Shown here in pieces: positions 386-55,828 of a DNA stretch of 64,000 nt. Below the pieces are notes generated by a model. The model saw nothing but the letters and a program-made list of their open reading frames with translations. It was not told the origin of the DNA and did not search any database. This stretch comes from Paraburkholderia megapolitana (lineage in GTDB: Bacteria > Pseudomonadota > Gammaproteobacteria > Burkholderiales > Burkholderiaceae). The stretch covers positions 1,651,001 to 1,715,000 of the forward strand of contig NZ_CP041745.1 of assembly GCF_007556815.1 (NCBI RefSeq). Reading direction: 5' to 3'. Position 1 is the first letter of the stretch. Each line of letters starts with the position of its first letter. The translations under genes and the position numbers were made by a program.

Positions 386-853
386 ATGGGAATGGATATC
401 ATCGACCGCAAGCTGCTGGAACTGCTGCAGGAAGATGCGACGATGCCGGTCGCGGAACTCGCGCAACGCGTGAACCTGTCGCAGACGCCATGCTGGAAAC
501 GGGTGCAGCGTCTGAAGGAGATGGGCGTGATTCGGGCGCAGGTCGCGTTATGCGATCCGCGTAAGCTCGGAGTGGGAACGACGGTGTTCGTCGCGGTGCG
601 GACGAACCAGCACACGGAGGAATGGGCGCGTACGTTCACGCAGGCCGTGCAGGATATTCCGGAGGTGGTGGAGGTGTACCGGATGAGCGGCGAGACGGAT
701 TATCTGCTGCGCGTCGTGGTGTCGGATATCGACGACTACGATCGGGTTTATAAGCTGCTCATTCGTGCGGTGCCGCTTTATGACGTCAGTTCTAGTTTTG
801 CTATGGAGCAGATCAAGTATTCGACGGCGTTGCCGGTGCGCTTTTCTGTGTAG
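386..853 (+). CDS. Lrp/AsnC family transcriptional regulator
   Basis: The 155-residue product has the standard two-domain build. An N-terminal winged helix-turn-helix (about residues 5-55, DRKLLELLQEDATMPVAELA then LSQTPCWKRVQRL) is followed by the RAM/AsnC ligand domain (about 65-145, with GETDYLLRVVV). Length is normal for the family. I chose the ATG at 386; an ATG at 392 is also possible, and in-frame extension to 275 adds an unlikely leader. It probably senses an amino acid and may control the divergent cysteine dioxygenase gene. Its last codons (811-853) are the insertion point of the large element that follows, and the present 3' end is presumably supplied by the element. Confidence 0.9.
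   Translation: MGMDIIDRKLLELLQEDATMPVAELAQRVNLSQTPCWKRVQRLKEMGVIRAQVALCDPRKLGVGTTVFVAVRTNQHTEEWARTFTQAVQDIPEVVEVYRMSGETDYLLRVVVSDIDDYDRVYKLLIRAVPLYDVSSSFAMEQIKYSTALPVRFSV
811..838. repeat. attL, left attachment site of the 54.6-kb element
   Basis: The 18 bases GATCAAGTATTCGACGGC (811-828), one variable base, then TTGCCGGTG (830-838) recur at 55397-55424 with only that one base different. Similarity continues weakly for about 26 bases. The site is in the last codons of the Lrp-type gene (IKYSTALPV) and a tyrosine integrase starts about 180 bp downstream. This is the usual arrangement for an element that integrates into a gene's 3' end and restores the reading frame. Confidence 0.85.
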
Positions 854-951
854 TCCTTATCTGGCCGTGAGATGCCCGTCAGGCGGGAGTTTCGGGCCAA
901 TCTATGCGCCTCTTGTTCACCCGGTTATCCTCACTTTCCCCCTTGTTTTTG

Positions 952-41881: not shown

Positions 41882-43021
41882 CTAGGGGATTGTTTCCGGG
41901 ACGTTAGAACGCTGAAAGAACGCGTTGGCTACTCTGGATACGATGTCTTCGTGTGGGGACGGGATAGCGGGGGTTGCCAGCCCAATTTTGTAGTACCACA
42001 GCGCTGTCCGGACGGGGTGAACGAAGTCTTTGAGGAAGTAGTGTGTTGGATCGTTGGTAAACACAATGCCGTTTGCGGGGAACCTCTCCGTCTTGAAGCC
42101 GTGGTTGTCGCAGTCCTCCACTGTGGCCTGTAGTTCGCGCAGCCATGACTGATATTCAGTATCGCTCGATGGTGGTGGGAGATTGACGTCGATAAAGATG
42201 TAGTAGGGGATTTTTGTTTTGAGTGTGAGCGCGTCGTGTAACGCGCGAACTATACCGATGGATTCTCCTGGTACCCATTGTTTGCCGTTCCTCTGGCCAT
42301 GTATGCCAGGTCTGTGGCGACTTTTAGCCTCGACTGCGAAACGAACACCAGTAGCGGGATCGGTCGCGATGAACTCCGGGTGGTCGGTGGTGTTGTCTTT
42401 TTCATTCTCAAATTCGATTGTGAATCCTGCAGCGATAATGCTTGCTGTAACGCATAGCTCGTACAACGCCCCCTGAAACTGGTCGATTATGCGGAGTCGT
42501 TTGAGTATGGTTTTGGTAAGCGTTGCGTTGTTGCGAATCGTGAAGAGGTCGTAGGACATCCTGAGCCACGTTCCTTTCGCGCCGATGGGTGCGAAACCTA
42601 CGGGCGTAGGTGGTTGGTTTGGATCTTCGTCGTGGGCTGTCATAGCATTTGCCCAATCTCCTAATGGGTGTCGCGATCCCTGCGATTTGGCTCGTTCTGC
42701 GTCGAGCCAGTCGTAGCCAATGGTTGTAGCGCCGAAGTAGTTTAGGAAAGCGGGAAAATTACATGTATCGGTATCGACTCGGTGAAGCTCGCTACCTACC
42801 GCAAAAATGTGGCCACCGCCGAATGATGCGTGAACAGGCATGCGTGCGCGACCATGTTTCTCACGGAACACCCCTTGAAGGGCTGCTTCTCTTGCGAAGT
42901 GTTCAGCGGCCTTTCTGAACGTTTCCTGTGAGGGTGCGTTCGAAACGAGCGCGTGGCAGTTCTTGTATTCTTTTCCACTACCACACGCACACCGCAATTT
43001 ATTTTCTGCTTTCTTTGTCAT
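41882..43021 (-). CDS. SEC-C motif protein with PD-(D/E)XK-like nuclease core
   Basis: The 379-residue product begins with a SEC-C zinc motif (Cys11-x-Cys13 ... Cys22-His23 in RCACGSGKEYKNCH). The middle has GFTIEFENEKDN, HPEFIATDPATGVRFAVEAK: an acidic strand followed by E-A-K, the pattern of PD-(D/E)XK nucleases and Holliday-type enzymes. No partner gene is obvious; it converges on the PAAR gene and is divergent from nothing nearby. GC is lower than in the prophage. It could be an orphan restriction-like or anti-phage nuclease; I saw no characterised relative. Confidence 0.65.
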   Translation of the reverse strand: MTKKAENKLRCACGSGKEYKNCHALVSNAPSQETFRKAAEHFAREAALQGVFREKHGRARMPVHASFGGGHIFAVGSELHRVDTDTCNFPAFLNYFGATTIGYDWLDAERAKSQGSRHPLGDWANAMTAHDEDPNQPPTPVGFAPIGAKGTWLRMSYDLFTIRNNATLTKTILKRLRIIDQFQGALYELCVTASIIAAGFTIEFENEKDNTTDHPEFIATDPATGVRFAVEAKSRHRPGIHGQRNGKQWVPGESIGIVRALHDALTLKTKIPYYIFIDVNLPPPSSDTEYQSWLRELQATVEDCDNHGFKTERFPANGIVFTNDPTHYFLKDFVHPVRTALWYYKIGLATPAIPSPHEDIVSRVANAFFQRSNVPETIP

Positions 43022-45646: not shown

Positions 45647-46168
45647 TCAAAGGTCGAACGGGGTGAGTTCTGGGTTTAGAGAGCGGTCCATATTGAACAC
45701 GAGTTGACGGAAGACTCGTGCGTCTCCTTCAAAACTCGACAGAAATCCAAGACAGTGGCCGCAGGCGAGTAACACAACATCTGCTTCGCTGCTTTCGCGA
45801 ACGTCTTCGATACCTGACATTGTTGCGGCCTCGCGCAGATAGATTTCCTTGACCCTGTCGAACTTCCGGGCTCTCTGAGGAGATTGTAGCGTGTGTGCGA
45901 TGACGTTGCGAAAGGCGTTCAGCGCCGCGATTAAATCCCATTCGCCCAAGTCGTTTTTTCGTAAACACAGCGCTCGACAGAGGTGTACCTTGCCAGCGAA
46001 ACTTAATCGCGCTTCCGCCACGTGTTCACGATGGAAGACGAATTGATCAATGATTCTGCTGAGCGCTTCCTCAATTAGTAGATGTCCTTTGAGCAACACA
46101 TGAACCGTGTTGTCAACAACACCCATCTCCTCAACAAAGCGGGCATGCGCTTTCTGGATTTCGTTCAT
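45647..46168 (-). CDS. HEPN-like RNase domain protein
   Basis: The 173-residue product, starting at MNEIQKAHARFVEEMGVV, is helical and contains an R-x4-H motif (Arg87-Asn-Val-Ile-Ala-His92 in LNAFRNVIAHTL), the catalytic signature of HEPN ribonucleases. The segment LLIEEALSRIIDQFVFHREH before it resembles HEPN helix 1. A longer open frame continues upstream to 47299 but that part is the antisense of the ATPase gene. It is divergent from the GHKL-ATPase gene across 186 bp, so the three genes may form one locus. Confidence 0.6.
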   Translation of the reverse strand: MNEIQKAHARFVEEMGVVDNTVHVLLKGHLLIEEALSRIIDQFVFHREHVAEARLSFAGKVHLCRALCLRKNDLGEWDLIAALNAFRNVIAHTLQSPQRARKFDRVKEIYLREAATMSGIEDVRESSEADVVLLACGHCLGFLSSFEGDARVFRQLVFNMDRSLNPELTPFDL

Positions 46169-46354
46169 TGTTGTCCTCGGAGTTACACGTCCGACGGGGT
46201 TTGTGGCTTGGGAAGCGGAGATACCACGCGGACAAACCGCGCGCAGCGGTGAGTGTAACTCCACCGCTATTTCTCTGTTAGTCTCTCGGAAGACAGCCCG
46301 GGGATCGTAACAACTCCGGCTCCACGAGAGGTGGTGCTTGCGGACCGATACGAC

Positions 46355-47542
46355 ATGATTTCCTTTCCGACTGCAGTTAGCATAAAAGAGATTGAGGAAG
46401 CGTACACGATGCTTCCCAATGACCATACCCTGCAACTTACCACCGGTCTGAAGTTCGGTGGCAATGTCGGAGTCCCGGGGGCTCTCATGCAATTTTTGGC
46501 CGCGTGGTCGCGAAGAGTAGACCGGCCAACATTGCGACTCTATAGCAGAAGCACGACTGAGGCGTCCGAGGCCCTGGCAAGGGAACCGCATGGAATTGTT
46601 GCCGCGTACTTTGCCGACGCCATCCAAACCGTTGGTGGTCGGTCGCTCTCGACACGTGAGGCCTTGGCGGACGCAGTCTCCCGAATTGAGGCAATGCAGA
46701 ATGGAGCCTTTCGGGAGACGATGCACGGGCGGGGTGCGTTCTTGGGTTGCTTCGCACGTGCAAAGAATGAATTTCTCATTCCTTTGTATTCTCGACCTGA
46801 GATCGGTGCTGTACGCTCGCGCGACGAATTTGTCACACTGACGTCGCGGTTGATTGCTGCGTGTGCGCCGGTGGCCGAGCGGAGACTGACAGACACTTGG
46901 CGAGTCGCCCTCGGGACACTTCTTTACGAGCTTTTCCGAAATACGGATGAACACGCCACAATGGACGAAGAAGGACGGCCGTATGCCAGAAACGTCCGAG
47001 CGGTCATGGCGAAGTACATCACCTACGATGCCAAAAATGCATCGGCACATCTCGGCGAAGACGACCCATCGCTTGGCTTTTTCATACTGCATAATATTGC
47101 GAACCGGCCGAGATTCACGACTACTGAAGGGCGTCGGGAGCAGAATCGCGAGAGCGCTCTGCTTGAACTTACGATTATGGACACTGGACCCGGGCTGGCG
47201 CGGCGATGGCTGTCCCACTACGGTCATGCTGGCGATCAGATTGAGAAACTTCCGATTGATGACGAAGTATCGCTTGTGAAAAAGTGCTTTGAGCTTCACG
47301 CCACGACAAAAACAACGGCAGGTAGTGGAGGCGGTCTTTCATACGTTTTGCAAACGCTTCAGCGACTGAACGCTTACCTTCGCCTTAGAACGGGAAGGGT
47401 TTGCTTGGTACAGGATTTCTCTGTTCCGAAAGAGGATGTGACGTTTGCACCGAGACATTGGTTAACGGAGCGCCCGGAGCTACCGATGGCAGCTGGTGCC
47501 TGCTATTCGATTGTTGTCCCGCTGACGAAGGGCCTGCTATGA
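46355..47542 (+). CDS. GHKL-type ATPase of unknown system
   Basis: The 395-residue product has an N-terminal region without recognised domain and a C-terminal GHKL (HSP90/histidine-kinase-like) ATPase fold. The N box is ELFRNTDEHA (Asn about 196), the G1 box DTGPG (about 276-280), and the lid/G2 is GSGGGLSYVLQTL (about 323-335). There is no H box or receiver, so it is not a sensor kinase; MORC-, MutL- or Paraoxonase-like defence ATPases use this fold. The start is uncertain: a GTG at 46331 adds eight residues. It overlaps the next gene by 4 bp (ATGA). Confidence 0.75.
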   Translation: MISFPTAVSIKEIEEAYTMLPNDHTLQLTTGLKFGGNVGVPGALMQFLAAWSRRVDRPTLRLYSRSTTEASEALAREPHGIVAAYFADAIQTVGGRSLSTREALADAVSRIEAMQNGAFRETMHGRGAFLGCFARAKNEFLIPLYSRPEIGAVRSRDEFVTLTSRLIAACAPVAERRLTDTWRVALGTLLYELFRNTDEHATMDEEGRPYARNVRAVMAKYITYDAKNASAHLGEDDPSLGFFILHNIANRPRFTTTEGRREQNRESALLELTIMDTGPGLARRWLSHYGHAGDQIEKLPIDDEVSLVKKCFELHATTKTTAGSGGGLSYVLQTLQRLNAYLRLRTGRVCLVQDFSVPKEDVTFAPRHWLTERPELPMAAGACYSIVVPLTKGLL

Positions 47543-49770
47543 AAGGGTTCTTCACTTTTGATTTTATCTTGTCCGACGAGGGCGCGATCCGGAATTTCCA
47601 TTTCCTGTTCAAGGCGCCCGGCACGCGGAACGATACATATCTGGCTGATGCTATCGAGAATGGACTACAGGCAGTCTCTGCGCCTGATGTAGTTGCAATC
47701 GTTTGCCCTTCAGAAGAAGAAACTGAGATCGGGGCCGCATTTGGAGCGCCCGTTCTCAGTCAAGCAGCTGACCGAACATCAAACAAAGTGTGCCTTTGCG
47801 TCTGTACGTTCGATCCGGACGGCACCATTCGGCTAGGCCACCAGTTACGAAACGCGATCGAAGGTCTGGATGCACTACTGCAAAACAAAACTGATGCCAT
47901 TCGCTTTGCAGGTTTGCAGAAACTTTTTTCTGCACACCATGTACTGGTAAGTGCACCGCCTGGATTCACGTTCGTGAAGCCGTCGCAAAGGCGTTCGACA
48001 CATTTCCTGCGAACCGAAGAAGCATTAACAGAGGTCGAGGGAGTGCAATTTCTCGCCTATGCGCTGTTGCACAAACTGCGGAAACGAGCGGATGTCTACA
48101 AAGACCATCTTGATGTCATCTATATCGACTCGATGGGAATTGCTAGCGTGGCGTACGCACTTCGGGACATGTATTGTGCAATGTATGGAGCGCCGCGACC
48201 ACGCGTGGTTAGCTTCCACTCCCATGATGGTATTGAACATGTCGATGTGCCGCTCTCTGGCACTTCGTTCTGTCTGATTTCGGCGTCCTCATCTCTGAAT
48301 CTCGAACGAGAGTGGCAGAAGCGCACGCGCTGCCATCAGGATGAAGTCGTCACGCTCCTTACACTTGAAGATGCTCACGGCCGCGAGAACGCGATTTTTG
48401 CGTTGCCCGCACCTGAATGGATAGGCGCTGGTCAATCGCAAAAGCATCTGCGCGATTTACCAATTGTGGGCGAGAGATTTGCTGCAGCTGACCTCATGCC
48501 CAAGTCAGTGCTTCTCAGAAAGGATCACAAAGAAAGACAGGCGGAAGAATTTTGTCGAAGATTCGTTATGACGGGCAGGCTTGGAATCCAGGGGCGTGGT
48601 CGTGGAGGCGGCAAGGTGAGGCCGCTTTATCTCGACGGAACTAACTTCTCCAGCACGCTCGGTTTCGATGAATTTCTGAACCGCACTCTCCGCCAAAATA
48701 CGGTGGCGTCGGTCAGTGCGATCATTTACCAGGACGATCAAGCATCTGAAGAACTCGCCCGAGTATGTGCGCATTTGCTTGCGCAAATAATGCTTCGAGT
48801 ATCCGGCCTGCGGATAATCAATGAGAACAGTCTAGGAACGCCGCAGGGATGGATCGAAAAGGAGGCCGGGCTACTTATCGTGGCAACGGTTGTTGGTCGT
48901 GGCACCCGATTGCTGTCTATCAGTCGCGACCTTAGAGACATTCACGAGGGCGCTCGCACTTACCTGATCGGGGCTCAGATTGCCGAGACAGCGAACCAGA
49001 TGAAGGTGCTCGCGAACAATCTGAAATATTCAGCGACCAAGGCGAACATCGAAATTGCGCGATTTGCTCAGATTGCCATCGGTATCGGTTTAGGTGATTC
49101 GTACGTCGACGAGGCACAGCTATTTCAGAACACCGATACTTCGTTTGGCGAAAGACACAACGTTCGAAAAAACACACTCACCGGAACGCCGTCGGGGCAG
49201 AATGAAGCGGCGTTTATTGGGTCGAATTTTGATTTGACTCAACCAATGAAGCTCCGGCTCGACTTCGCTTTCTGGGGTTTCAAATACAATGCTGATACGG
49301 CCTGTACCACTTCGAGTGTATTCGCGATGATCGGTGCCATTCTTCAGAACGCGAGAGAGAGTAAATTCGAAGATCAGACGTTGCGCTTGTCCACAGATGC
49401 GTTTCAACAGGTAATTCTGGACCCCGAAAACTTCACCCGTTACAACGATGGTGTGATTCAAGCCGCGTTGCTACGGTGTGCCAGGGTCGGCGAACTAGAC
49501 TACTCGAAGGAGCAAGGATCGAGTCAGTTCATGCTTGATCTACTGAAAAGCATTTTTCAGCAACACGATAGACGCCAAGGCGAAGCTGCGGCGGAATTTG
49601 CGCTCGCTCTAAGGCTCAAAAAACTCCGTCTGCATACCGAGCACGAACTGGCGCTCAGTGAGTATCTTGGCGACAAACTCCCGGCTGACACTCCGAGGCT
49701 TCGTCTCATTCGCGCTCTCCTCGGCATTGATCCGATGCCGGATGTAGGCCGATTGCCATCCGAATTCTGA
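47539..49770 (+). CDS. 743-residue protein, possibly two phosphoribosyltransferase-like domains
   Basis: I do not recognise this 743-residue family. Two stretches look like type I phosphoribosyltransferase folds: 190-255 (HLDVIYIDSMGIASVAYALR, then FCLISASSSLN where the PRPP loop is expected) and about 440-482 (AGLLIVATVVGRGTRLLSIS, DLRDIHEGARTYLIGAQIAE, like a VVDDxxxTGxT loop). The rest is mixed alpha/beta, no transmembrane segments. It starts 4 bp inside the ATPase gene, so translation is coupled and the two proteins very likely work together. The pair is AT-richer than the prophage. Function unknown. Confidence 0.6.
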   Translation: MKGFFTFDFILSDEGAIRNFHFLFKAPGTRNDTYLADAIENGLQAVSAPDVVAIVCPSEEETEIGAAFGAPVLSQAADRTSNKVCLCVCTFDPDGTIRLGHQLRNAIEGLDALLQNKTDAIRFAGLQKLFSAHHVLVSAPPGFTFVKPSQRRSTHFLRTEEALTEVEGVQFLAYALLHKLRKRADVYKDHLDVIYIDSMGIASVAYALRDMYCAMYGAPRPRVVSFHSHDGIEHVDVPLSGTSFCLISASSSLNLEREWQKRTRCHQDEVVTLLTLEDAHGRENAIFALPAPEWIGAGQSQKHLRDLPIVGERFAAADLMPKSVLLRKDHKERQAEEFCRRFVMTGRLGIQGRGRGGGKVRPLYLDGTNFSSTLGFDEFLNRTLRQNTVASVSAIIYQDDQASEELARVCAHLLAQIMLRVSGLRIINENSLGTPQGWIEKEAGLLIVATVVGRGTRLLSISRDLRDIHEGARTYLIGAQIAETANQMKVLANNLKYSATKANIEIARFAQIAIGIGLGDSYVDEAQLFQNTDTSFGERHNVRKNTLTGTPSGQNEAAFIGSNFDLTQPMKLRLDFAFWGFKYNADTACTTSSVFAMIGAILQNARESKFEDQTLRLSTDAFQQVILDPENFTRYNDGVIQAALLRCARVGELDYSKEQGSSQFMLDLLKSIFQQHDRRQGEAAAEFALALRLKKLRLHTEHELALSEYLGDKLPADTPRLRLIRALLGIDPMPDVGRLPSEF

Positions 49771-50055: not shown

Positions 50056-50823
50056 TTAGTCCTTCGCCGGTACTACGTCTTTGTGGATGATTCGCGTTAG
50101 CGCTTCAGTTATCCGTTCACGTTCAAGGAACCGAAGCTCGCCGGACGACGTTCCGCCCCGGAGTACCATGCCGGCGAACCATATCTTGCTTAGATTTGGA
50201 TAACTCTGAAGTACCTGAAATACTGGTGCACCGCTCATTCCATCAAAGGATTCAATCTGATCCGCACAGTGAACTCGGAGCACGTGAACTCGATCGGATA
50301 CACAGGGACCTGCATACTCGGCGTCTATTAGCATTGGCCTAGAGATAATTGCTTCAAGCTCGGTCTCGCACTCGATGGCATGGAGGTGTGACGGGTATCC
50401 TTGCACAACGAAAATAGAGGTTTTGTCAAAGATCGGTGGCGCCTCAGAATCTGATAGTTCGTAGGGAGGCGCGTCGGAGAACAATGAGATGTCCAGCTTC
50501 GATCCATCGACTTCGAAGATGACGAGATCATACTGATCCGTATCAGACGGGTCGCCTCCCGCAAAGACATACCGGAAAGACATCGGTACAAAGCCATACA
50601 CGCTTGGATGGTATTGCATGCACGCATGTGCAAGATCAAAGTTTGCTGTTACATGTCGAGCAGTGATAGCGAAGACCCTTCTGTGATATCTAACAAGAAA
50701 CCCTGACCCACAAATCGAAAATGGAAATTCCGGATACTCAGAATAAAACAGTATTGGCCTAGCACAACGAAATATCGCCAAGACGGAGGTGCGCATGGTA
50801 ACGATTTTCACGTCAGAATTCAT
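50056..50823 (-). CDS. Trypsin-like serine protease
   Basis: The 255-residue product has the trypsin-type fold with a visible triad: His57 in VFAITARHVT, Asp99 in DQYDLVIFEVD and Ser197 in FDGMSGAPVFQV. N-terminal CGSGFLVRYHRR is typical. No signal peptide is seen, so it is probably cytoplasmic. Its ATG overlaps the stop of the upstream ApeA-like gene by 11 bp, so the two form one operon. Proteases coupled to HEPN or sensor proteins are known in several anti-phage systems, and that role is inferred here. Confidence 0.8.
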   Translation of the reverse strand: MNSDVKIVTMRTSVLAIFRCARPILFYSEYPEFPFSICGSGFLVRYHRRVFAITARHVTANFDLAHACMQYHPSVYGFVPMSFRYVFAGGDPSDTDQYDLVIFEVDGSKLDISLFSDAPPYELSDSEAPPIFDKTSIFVVQGYPSHLHAIECETELEAIISRPMLIDAEYAGPCVSDRVHVLRVHCADQIESFDGMSGAPVFQVLQSYPNLSKIWFAGMVLRGGTSSGELRFLERERITEALTRIIHKDVVPAKD

Positions 50824-52540
50824 TCGCCCCGCCTCTTTCTGGAGCTTCGACTTTGACTACAGGGACACTGGCGGGACATGCTGCCGCAAGTTTCGATTCA
50901 TCAAAAATGTAGGCAGAATGAAACTCCAAAGCTTTTCCTTCGCACTCGACGTACATGTGAGAGACATGCCGGACCACGTCTGGCGAAACACCGAAGATCT
51001 GATCCGCAGTAAACACGCCCTTATGATGCCCCATGTGCCAATCCTTATGCATCTGCGTATAGTGCTCAGAGAAGGTTATTTCACGATTCGGTCCCTCTGT
51101 GAAGCAAGCGAAAACACCGGAGCCGCTGTAGGAAGACAGATGGCCGAAGCCGTCAGCATCTAAGGCGAAGAACGCTGCAGCGTCGGTCACGCGCGCTAAG
51201 TGTTTTTCATCTACCTGTGCGAGCCGGCGTAAGCGGTTAAAAGGGCTCTTCAATCCCTTCAAGAAGTCGCCCTTTGATAGACCAAAGTCCACATATGCCC
51301 AGTATGTCAGCAGTAGTTCGATTCGAGTAACGACGATGTGAATCTGTTGGAACTCTGCTTCCTTCAGTTCGATAGCATCGCCATGTGCGATCTTGTCCCG
51401 GACTTTTTTTATCAGCCGGAAATTCTCACCCGTGATGTTGATGATCTTGACTATGTCCGCGTCGGTGGAGGCGATCGCCGTCGCATATTTCTCGGGAAAC
51501 GTCGCCTCCTGCAGATGAGAAAATGCTTGACGGACAGCATCGAGGACATCGGTAAGCATCCGCGAATCAAGCCGTGGTGAGACACCATTCAGCGCATCTT
51601 GCAGTTTACTCATCGACTTAGCACGGGGTGGCACTACAATTTTCTTGAGTAAATTGTGACTGACGTAGCTGTCCAGGAGCGAGACATAGCCGAGCGTTTT
51701 GTATTCCCAAAACCCCTCATAGCGTTGCATGCCGGCGAGGCGCATCCATCGAATTTTTCGATGAGCAGACTGGAAATATTTTTGAATAACTGATTCCCAA
51801 TACGCGTCGAGCCAGTGCTTCTGTGTAAAACAGTCTCGGAGGAAATCGTTGATAGATGTGTCCCGGACAACCGGTCTGAACGTCGGAAAGTAAAGTGCGA
51901 AATTGCGCCCCGCTTGAGTTTGGACGGTCACCGCTAGAATGGAGACCGGCTGAGCAATTAGGATCGACAGTAGACATGCAAACTCCATCGCTTTTTCTTT
52001 CGCATCCTGCGCTGTCAAGCGCCCACTTGCAGGTCGGATCGCAAACTCGATGTACTCGTGCAAAACATGATCTTTCCCGTTGTGACCTACATAACCTACG
52101 TACTCGGTCGTCAGATGGAACCGCCGATTGGCGTCGTCGAAATCTGCTGATATTTTCTGGGGAAGTCCTGACCATGTAAGTTTCTCACCGACCACCCCGT
52201 CAATCGTTCGCCATTGCAGAAACCACTCGGAGATGTCGCTGTAGCGGATATCGATGCGCTGAAACTCGGCGTCAGGCACGTCGCCAGCGATCAGGTAGTC
52301 TGCGTAGATGGCATGGCCGTACACCTTGCATCCATGCAACGTGAATGATTTCCCTTTTTCTGAGCGAGCGTGCACTGGTCCCAATGGATAACCGGATTCC
52401 CCATTTGGTAGGCGGTTCATCATCGACAATTGGATGCTTATTGGTCCACCCCCGCCGAACGTCAGCTTTCCATCACCCAACCCACCGCGTTCATTACTGT
52501 TCAGTTCTACGCGGTGAGCCTCTTGTTCTAGGAAGGTCAT
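50813..52540 (-). CDS. ApeA-like protein with HEPN domain
   Basis: The 575-residue product has an N-terminal beta-rich region (about 20-240, GPISIQLSMMNRLPNGESGY, AIYADYLIAGDVPDAEFQRI) like the ApeA N-terminal domain, and a helical HEPN domain with the motif R381-DKIA-H386 in VRDKIAHGDAI. ApeA proteins are known to abort phage infection. The C-terminal 150 residues (VDEKHLARVTDAAAFFALDA, GVFTADQIFGVSPDVVRHVS) are an extra part I do not recognise. The trypsin-like gene that overlaps its stop codon is not part of the described single-gene ApeA system. Confidence 0.75.
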   Translation of the reverse strand: MTFLEQEAHRVELNSNERGGLGDGKLTFGGGGPISIQLSMMNRLPNGESGYPLGPVHARSEKGKSFTLHGCKVYGHAIYADYLIAGDVPDAEFQRIDIRYSDISEWFLQWRTIDGVVGEKLTWSGLPQKISADFDDANRRFHLTTEYVGYVGHNGKDHVLHEYIEFAIRPASGRLTAQDAKEKAMEFACLLSILIAQPVSILAVTVQTQAGRNFALYFPTFRPVVRDTSINDFLRDCFTQKHWLDAYWESVIQKYFQSAHRKIRWMRLAGMQRYEGFWEYKTLGYVSLLDSYVSHNLLKKIVVPPRAKSMSKLQDALNGVSPRLDSRMLTDVLDAVRQAFSHLQEATFPEKYATAIASTDADIVKIINITGENFRLIKKVRDKIAHGDAIELKEAEFQQIHIVVTRIELLLTYWAYVDFGLSKGDFLKGLKSPFNRLRRLAQVDEKHLARVTDAAAFFALDADGFGHLSSYSGSGVFACFTEGPNREITFSEHYTQMHKDWHMGHHKGVFTADQIFGVSPDVVRHVSHMYVECEGKALEFHSAYIFDESKLAAACPASVPVVKVEAPERGGANEF

Positions 52541-55396: not shown

Positions 55397-55424
55397 GATC
55401 AAGTATTCGACGGCATTGCCGGTG
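55397..55424. repeat. attR, right attachment site of the 54.6-kb element
   Basis: GATCAAGTATTCGACGGC (55397-55414) and TTGCCGGTG (55416-55424) repeat the attL bases at the end of the Lrp-type gene with one difference. The flanking codons also read IKYSTALPVRFSV as in the Lrp C-terminus, so this is the displaced original 3' end of that gene. It marks the return to host chromosome. Confidence 0.85.
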
Positions 55425-55828
55425 AGGTTTTCGGTGCGATGCTTGTCTGGAAGTGAGGCGATTGCCTCGCCGCTGACTCAGACTATGAATTTATCGGCAC
55501 CGCCCGGGCGACCCGGGGTGGAATTGACTGTCGCAACTCGATCGGTATGATTTTTACTCGGTTGTGCGGCCGATTCGCACCCTCTAAAAGTCCCGATGCC
55601 CGTGAAGAACACCGATGTGGATATTGGTTCGAGTCAGGTCTCCGGTGCCGTTGATTTTTCCAACGATGCCCATCAGTGAAAGAAGTGCGAAGCGGCTCCT
55701 CAGAAGGGGAGCTTCTATCATCAGATTTCGTTGCAGGCGAACACGACAAATCAGCTAAAAAAACTACAATTTCCAGCACCGACTCTCTATACGATGGACG
55801 TCCCTCCATTCCGCTTTCCCGATCATCG
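55425..55828. other. Host gap between attR and the acetyltransferase gene
   Basis: No convincing gene. A short inverted repeat GAGGCGATTGCCTC (55456-55469) may be the old terminator of the Lrp-type gene, and a tRNA-3'-like fragment GGTTCGAGTC begins at 55627. Confidence 0.35.

What the first reader, a model, noticed from the sequence alone, without database searches (positions are those of the whole stretch)
45647..49770. Candidate new defence locus: HEPN gene divergent from a GHKL ATPase and a 743-residue partner
A GHKL ATPase without kinase parts overlaps by 4 bp a large protein with two possible phosphoribosyltransferase-like regions; a divergent neighbour has an R-x4-H HEPN motif. Nucleotide-handling, ATPase and RNase parts together in an accessory region are the usual ingredients of conflict systems, but I cannot match this set to any named system. 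It could sense phage or nucleotide changes through the ATPase and respond through the HEPN RNase or through a nucleotide-modifying activity.
Basis: partly seen in the sequence, partly recalled or inferred. Interest (0 to 1): 0.8.

Follow-up and report, generated by a model that had tools for sequence, protein, structure and literature searches.

The report
Two-gene phage-defence candidate, HEPN gene bystander
Two neighbouring bacterial genes, an ATP-binding switch protein and a large protein built from two apparently inactive nucleotide-enzyme folds, travel together on mobile DNA beside known phage-defence genes and probably form one defence system, whereas the nearby RNA-cutting-type gene looks like a chance neighbour.

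Summary
The genes are real. The GHKL gene (46331-47542) and the 743-residue gene (47539-49770) form a conserved unit: the GHKL gene lies directly upstream in 27 of 27 pairs measured. They match PADLOC-DB candidate PDC-M65A/B (E 4.6e-25, 1.2e-75), so the pair is already listed, by sequence only.

The PRPP-loop acid pair is missing from the first in 28 of 28 sequences and from the second in 27 of 28. The GHKL part resembles SpoIIAB; its ATP motifs are kept in 29 of 29.

The HEPN gene is not part of it: its profile hits none of 30 loci with the pair or a piece of it, and its close relative lies in a genome without the pair. Some relatives of the pair sit beside Zorya, Wadjet, Hachiman, Lamassu or Qat genes. 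Here it lies on a roughly 72-kb island, empty in two relatives. Best reading: an ATP-driven switch controls a tandem pseudo-PRTase in phage defence; the mechanism is inferred.

The parts
46331..47542 (+). M65A: GHKL ATPase/kinase-like protein, 403 aa (395 if ATG 46355 is used); N-terminal alpha/beta domain ~1-135, SpoIIAB-type GHKL domain ~144-401
47539..49770 (+). M65B: 743 aa; PRTase-like fold 1 (~89-297), PRTase-like fold 2 (~343-513), conserved helical C-terminal domain (~590-735)
45647..46168 (-). HEPN-type gene, 173 aa, R-x4-H; judged a neighbour, not a part of the system
   Evidence: motif; no association; no Pfam family over cut-off
811..871 (+). left copy of imperfect 61-nt direct repeat at the 3' end of the lrp/asnC-type gene (392-853), next to a tyrosine integrase (1019-2113): candidate left end of the island
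55397..55457 (+). right copy of the 61-nt repeat (82%): candidate right end of the integrase-bearing element that holds the pair

Best explanation
The locus is a two-gene anti-phage defence candidate (M65A + M65B) carried as cargo of an integrated mobile island; the HEPN gene beside it is an independent passenger. M65A is an ATP-binding GHKL switch of the SpoIIAB/anti-sigma kinase type. It holds M65B, or changes its state by ATP binding, hydrolysis or phosphorylation, when infection is sensed. M65B carries two phosphoribosyltransferase-like folds that have lost the canonical PRPP acid pair. They most likely bind a phosphoribosyl or nucleotide-type ligand, or M65A itself, rather than run the classical reaction. 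Its strongly conserved helical C-terminal domain is the likeliest output part, with growth arrest or cell death as the outcome. Shown: pairing, predicted folds, motif losses and gains, island position, defence neighbours. Inferred: the defence function, the direction of control, the ligand and the output.
For: Pairing: M65A directly upstream, spacing -23 to +90 nt, in 27 of 27 pairs measured, -4 nt in 14 of them. Match to PDC-M65A/B. In 18 fetched family loci plus the window, A and B are in all 19 and no other gene cluster has more than 4 members. Folds: M65B; M65A. Profile alignment puts domain 2 on APRT (p 0.011, 104 columns) and OPRT (p 0.017) and domain 1 on OPRT (p 0.047). Loops and ATP motifs. 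Neighbours: 132 PADLOC families among 137 neighbour proteins against 39 among 128 control proteins at E <= 1e-15; ZorA, JetC, HamB, LmuB, RmrA-type; Qat. Patchy: 26 of 398 family genomes, 7 of them with short remnants only. Island.
Against: No phage-challenge data. PADLOC candidates were themselves picked partly by neighbourhood (recalled), so neighbours are not independent proof. The PADLOC counts are redundant models, and controls also held AbiE and other hits. Of 20 neighbour proteins that I picked for single scans, 6 of 10 had no match at 1e-10 and 3 of 10 none at 1e-3. The Pantoea plasmid locus sits among metabolic genes. PRTase sequence signals are weak: comparisons that should not match reached p 0.063-0.10 in the same run. 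No Pfam PRTase model matches the window protein. The M65B model has mean pLDDT 66.6 and pTM 0.50, and fold 1 rests on two PurR rows of 50. L048 keeps a canonical PRPP loop in domain 2. No interaction between A and B was tested.
Confidence: 0.55

Rival explanations
1. CapK/VapK-like reading: M65A is a DNA-damage- or phage-activated protein kinase (STAS-like domain + GHKL) that phosphorylates M65B and thereby releases its activity.
For: M65A's GHKL domain is closest to SpoIIAB and aligns at E 4.9e-8 with four STAS-GHKL-type proteins from loci with a STAS-like (DUF4325) match. The order of helices and strands in its N-terminal domain fits a STAS fold, and W59 is kept in 24 of 29 rows. CapK and VapK are reported to bind ssDNA between STAS and GHKL through W68/F54 and to control immune outputs (PMC13373217; abstract, passages and sections 7 and 13 read).
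Against: The N-terminal domain shows no profile match to STAS (p 0.84, four sequences); no Pfam STAS hit in 18 members; M65B has no recognised STAS or wHTH domain.
Confidence: 0.3
2. M65B is an active enzyme with an unconventional phosphoribosyl-type active site (conserved S/T-rich ISAS[ST] loop, D197, R158), making or consuming a nucleotide when M65A lets it.
For: The ISAS[ST] loop is kept in 27 of 28, D197 in 28 of 28 and R158 in 26 of 28 sequences, strict for a dead site; L048 keeps LILDDVLITGDRL and reaches Pfam Pribosyltran at 0.0081, below its cut-off.
Against: Classical PRTases use the acid pair of the PRPP loop (general knowledge); at that place it is absent from domain 2 in 27 of 28 and from domain 1 in 28 of 28 sequences.
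Confidence: 0.2
3. Three-gene system, with the HEPN protein as RNase output.
For: Close divergent placement (162 nt between the two genes) and an intact R-x4-H motif.
Against: HEPN found in none of 19 stretches holding 18 pair loci by tblastn at 1e-3 and in none of 30 loci with the pair or a piece of it by profile at E <= 1, with a positive control found. HEPN in 4 of 398 genomes, only the window's own also having M65B. HEPN relatives lie in other settings.
Confidence: 0.04
4. A stress or metabolic regulator (for example nucleotide-pool sensing) of the mobile island itself, not a phage defence.
For: PurR and PyrR, among the fold matches, are nucleotide-pool sensors (general knowledge); an anti-sigma-like partner; one plasmid locus among metabolic genes.
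Against: More defence-gene matches near the pair than in controls and named systems beside several loci; scattered presence with remnants; no regulator recurs beside it.
Confidence: 0.15

Closest known systems
PADLOC-DB 2.0.0 candidate PDC-M65 (models PDLC04764/PDLC04765)
   Same: Both proteins match their models over most of the profile and are adjacent.
   Different: Nothing seen; it is a member. PADLOC gives no description, and no paper in the held library contains 'PDC-M65'.
CapK/CapS and VapKSC (PMC13373217)
   Same: SpoIIAB-like GHKL protein paired with an adjacent partner in immune loci.
   Different: No STAS shown by sequence here; the partner is a tandem PRTase-like protein, not STAS-wHTH or STAS + PIN.
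Type I phosphoribosyltransferase fold (OPRT, APRT, PyrR, PurR)
   Same: Two PRTase-like regions in the M65B model; an OPRT-like F..K.S...S..F segment in domain 1.
   Different: The acid pair of the PRPP loop is lost; extra N-terminal and C-terminal domains.
PRTase-containing defence systems: DprA-PRTase (PMC9122126, one passage read) and PRTase effectors of retrons (named there)
   Same: A PRTase-type protein used in defence.
   Different: No DprA or reverse transcriptase found beside it; the partner is a GHKL protein and the PRTase is tandem.
DefensePredictor systems (PMC13092281, two figure-legend passages read)
   Same: Legends list a PRTase among domains of validated systems and a HATPase among predicted ones.
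   Different: Whether either is this pair could not be seen.
VcSduA, GHKL-containing Shedu (PMC12137116, passages read)
   Same: GHKL ATPase as control part of a defence protein.
   Different: VcSduA is one protein with a PD-(D/E)xK nuclease; Pfam finds no nuclease domain in M65A or M65B.

Membership tests
PADLOC candidate PDC-M65 | protein A matches PDC-M65A | tested here: met
   E 4.6e-25, profile positions 4-347 of 398
PADLOC candidate PDC-M65 | protein B matches PDC-M65B | tested here: met
   E 1.2e-75, two stretches; positions 1-272 and 398-739 of 763 in the genome search
PADLOC candidate PDC-M65 | A and B adjacent | tested here: met
   4-nt overlap here; adjacent in 27 of 27 pairs measured
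PADLOC candidate PDC-M65 | protects against phage | not testable with these tools
   no experiment available
GHKL ATPase/kinase superfamily | Bergerat fold with N, G1 and G2 boxes | tested here: met
CapK/VapK-type immune kinases | STAS domain fused to the GHKL domain | tested here: inconclusive
   secondary-structure order fits; profile comparison p 0.84 with only four sequences; no Pfam STAS
CapK/VapK-type immune kinases | adjacent STAS-domain substrate with conserved Ser | tested here: inconclusive
   no STAS found in M65B by Pfam or by the thin profile (p 0.13-0.34 for its four pieces)
CapK/VapK-type immune kinases | ssDNA-activated phosphorylation of the partner | not testable with these tools
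   needs biochemistry
Type I phosphoribosyltransferases | PRTase fold | tested here: met
Type I phosphoribosyltransferases | PRPP loop with acid pair ([VI]-[VI]-[DE]-[DE]..TG; motif recalled) | tested here: not met
   absent in both domains of the window protein; at that place present only in domain 2 of L048 among 28 sequences
HEPN superfamily (gene 45647-46168) | R-x4-6-H motif | tested here: met
   invariant in 4 of 4
HEPN superfamily (gene 45647-46168) | match to a HEPN profile | tested here: inconclusive
   no Pfam match for the window protein; best in relatives Csm6_HEPN 0.059 and HEPN_Cthe2314 0.17, one member each; no fold predicted
DprA-PRTase or retron PRTase systems | DprA-like or reverse-transcriptase partner | tested here: not met
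   the only recurring partner is the GHKL protein; no such Pfam hit among the ten genes scanned around the locus

The most novel reading that the evidence does not exclude
An immune switch of a new make: a SpoIIAB/CapK-type ATP-driven kinase coupled to a tandem pseudo-phosphoribosyltransferase whose domains have been turned from enzymes into sensors of the nucleotide or PRPP pool. Phage take-over of nucleotide metabolism, or ssDNA, would then be read by the pair and converted into growth arrest through the M65B C-terminal domain.
Probability: 0.2. Interest if true: 0.75.

Novelty: new member of a known kind. Interest (0 to 1): 0.45.

Why it matters
It gives an anatomy to a defence candidate that PADLOC lists only as a pair of profile names: an anti-sigma-type GHKL switch joined to two repurposed phosphoribosyltransferase folds. 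If the function holds, it would be a case of PRTase folds used without their classical chemistry in immunity, and it supplies exact residues to mutate. It also shows that a tempting HEPN neighbour should not be counted as the effector.

Tried and rejected
HEPN as third component: rejected. M65A as an ordinary histidine kinase: Pfam shows no DHp or phosphoacceptor domain; the GHKL domain is SpoIIAB-like. STAS identity of the M65A N-terminus by profile comparison: no signal with four sequences, left open. SIS-domain reading of M65B domain 1 (FraB-type SIS proteins appear in the Foldseek list at rmsd about 24): set aside because VIA-align gives PRTases at rmsd 2.5-4.2 and none of its 50 rows is a SIS protein; not excluded, as fold 1 is barely sampled there. 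Trypsin-like + ApeA genes downstream as part of the unit: ApeA relatives in five genus genomes lie, in the 9-14 kb fetched, without the trypsin gene, M65 or HEPN. Close DNA relatives of the neighbouring prophage: 2% of a 15.9-kb query matched one phage record. Phage records: none with M65B among 50,697 by tblastn; one IMG/VR contig (L050, one search pattern; an earlier single-sequence scan found none). Solved structures by sequence: no match for A or B at E <= 1. Literature: 'PDC-M65' in 0 papers; combinations of PRTase, GHKL, HEPN, SpoIIAB-type and PADLOC terms, of which I saw listings and passages of four papers, showed no description of this pair. The library lacks most subscription papers and all preprints, so this is not proof of absence.
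Full report
WHAT IS THERE. 46331-47542 (+) encodes a GHKL protein (called M65A here), 47539-49770 (+) the 743-residue protein (M65B) with an ATGA overlap, and 45647-46168 (-) a 173-residue protein with R-x4-H. The long minus-strand ORF that runs to 47299 is not the gene: the relative in L070 starts at the methionine matching 46168, and the rest is antisense to conserved M65A.

THE PAIR IS A KNOWN CANDIDATE. Pfam and NCBIfam give almost nothing, but PADLOC-DB matches the two proteins to its candidate PDC-M65, parts A (E 4.6e-25) and B (E 1.2e-75). No paper in the held library contains 'PDC-M65'; that PDC stands for phage defence candidate is recalled. The genome is 7.6 Mb in 3 contigs. Its genus is probably Paraburkholderia, because the 'same genus' genome G040 has a contig of the same length (443,151) as the P. 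sartisoli record.

DISTRIBUTION. M65B is found in 26 of 398 genomes of the family. Eighteen of the other 25 were fetched with context. The remaining 7 show only short M65B pieces and no M65A in loci of 2.4-3.5 kb. Ten of 72,556 plasmid records, no phage record of 50,697 and one IMG/VR contig hold it; 11 loci came from named genomes, among them Collimonas, Massilia and Nitrosomonas. In 27 of 27 pairs measured, M65A ends between 23 nt past and 90 nt before the start of M65B; the spacing is exactly -4 in 14. Three further loci with both genes were not measured (L041, L050, L064). Clustering of genes in 18 family loci plus the window found M65A and M65B in all 19; the next largest clusters hold 4 members, one of them an IS3-type transposase.

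THE HEPN GENE IS A PASSENGER. tblastn finds it in none of 19 stretches holding 18 pair loci at 1e-3. A profile of four HEPN sequences hits none of 30 loci with the pair or a piece of it at E <= 1 among 4,806 open frames, while it finds the known relative in L070. It occurs in 4 of 398 family genomes, two of them partial and weak; of these only the window's own is among the 26 with M65B. Its 75% relative lies in a 17-kb stretch without M65; more distant ones lie on Sinorhizobium, Pseudomonas and Vibrio records that are not among those with M65B. The HEPN fold itself was not tested, and Pfam is silent for the window protein.

DEFENCE SETTING. Of 137 proteins (up to three on each side of the pair in 24 loci) and 128 proteins from 16 control stretches of the G-handle genomes, PADLOC at E <= 1e-15 reports 132 and 39 families. 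The counts are redundant, only 25 are listed each, loci and controls are not matched one to one, and the controls include AbiE and PDC-S02. Concrete neighbours: ZorA and an RmrA-type regulator (L034), JetC (L032), HamB (L058), LmuB (L041, L043), and Qat genes on a P. aeruginosa plasmid (L051). Against this, 6 of 10 and 3 of 10 neighbour proteins that I picked for single scans matched nothing, and the Pantoea plasmid locus sits among metabolic genes.

MOBILITY OF THIS COPY. An lrp/asnC-type gene (392-853; the stretch 1-860 finds a match in 97 of 97 genus genomes, a weak one in one of them) ends at an imperfect 61-nt repeat (811-871; second copy 55397-55457, 82%) and is followed by a tyrosine integrase (1019-2113; by motif, recalled). 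In G183 and G505 the end of that gene is followed after 66 and 57 nt by sequence that here lies at window coordinate about 72,700, beyond the right end; G340 and G473 have about 7.0 and 4.5 kb of other DNA there. So the pair lies on an island of about 72 kb, of which the first 54.6 kb may be one integrated element. It holds tailed-phage genes (terminase, head, sheath, tape measure at 9.4-31 kb), insertion sequences, and the cargo with M65.

MECHANISM. Shown: conserved two-gene unit, ATP site kept, two predicted PRTase folds without the acid pair, island position, defence neighbours. Inferred: M65A is the ATP-driven switch and M65B the ligand-binding and output protein. The closest worked example of such a switch is CapK/CapS and VapKSC (PMC13373217; abstract, passages, sections 7 and 13 read), where a SpoIIAB-like kinase, activated by ssDNA, phosphorylates one partner. 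My estimates: HEPN not part 0.93; phage defence 0.7; two PRTase folds 0.8 (lowered from 0.85 on recheck because fold 1 rests on two rows and a near-background profile match); no classical PRTase reaction 0.8; M65A controls M65B 0.5; by phosphorylation 0.3.

VERDICT. A sound observation, half-right interpretation. It is a member of an existing, uncharacterised PADLOC candidate, with an anatomy that I did not see described in the listings and passages searched. A DefensePredictor legend (PMC13092281) mentions a PRTase in a validated system and a HATPase in a predicted one; whether either is this pair could not be seen.

Noticed in passing
window 811 to about 72,700 (8.7 kb past the right end): An island of about 72 kb sits at the 3' end of an lrp/asnC-type gene; empty in G183 and G505, other inserts in G340 and G473, so the site looks like an integration hotspot.
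   Followed up: partly
window 9447-30991: Contractile-tailed prophage genes (terminase, major head, sheath, tape measure, tail protein); 2% of a 15.9-kb stretch matched one phage record by megablast.
   Followed up: partly
window 50056-52540 (-): A trypsin-like protease gene overlaps by 11 nt an ApeA-type HEPN gene (PF18862 + PF18739); possibly a protease-HEPN defence pair of its own. ApeA relatives in five genus genomes lack the protease in the stretches fetched.
   Followed up: partly
L033:11625-12167 and L034:11361-11948: Small genes just upstream of M65A in two loci look PIN-like by eye (the L034 one matches PDC-S70), recalling the VapC partner in VapKSC; not tested as PIN.
   Followed up: no
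L048:338-3577: Divergent pair (B 18% identical to the window's) that keeps a canonical PRPP loop in domain 2; it may be an enzymatically active branch.
   Followed up: partly
window 41882-43021 (-): Gene with an N-terminal SEC-C motif and a long unassigned rest, between the prophage and the IS3 element.
   Followed up: no
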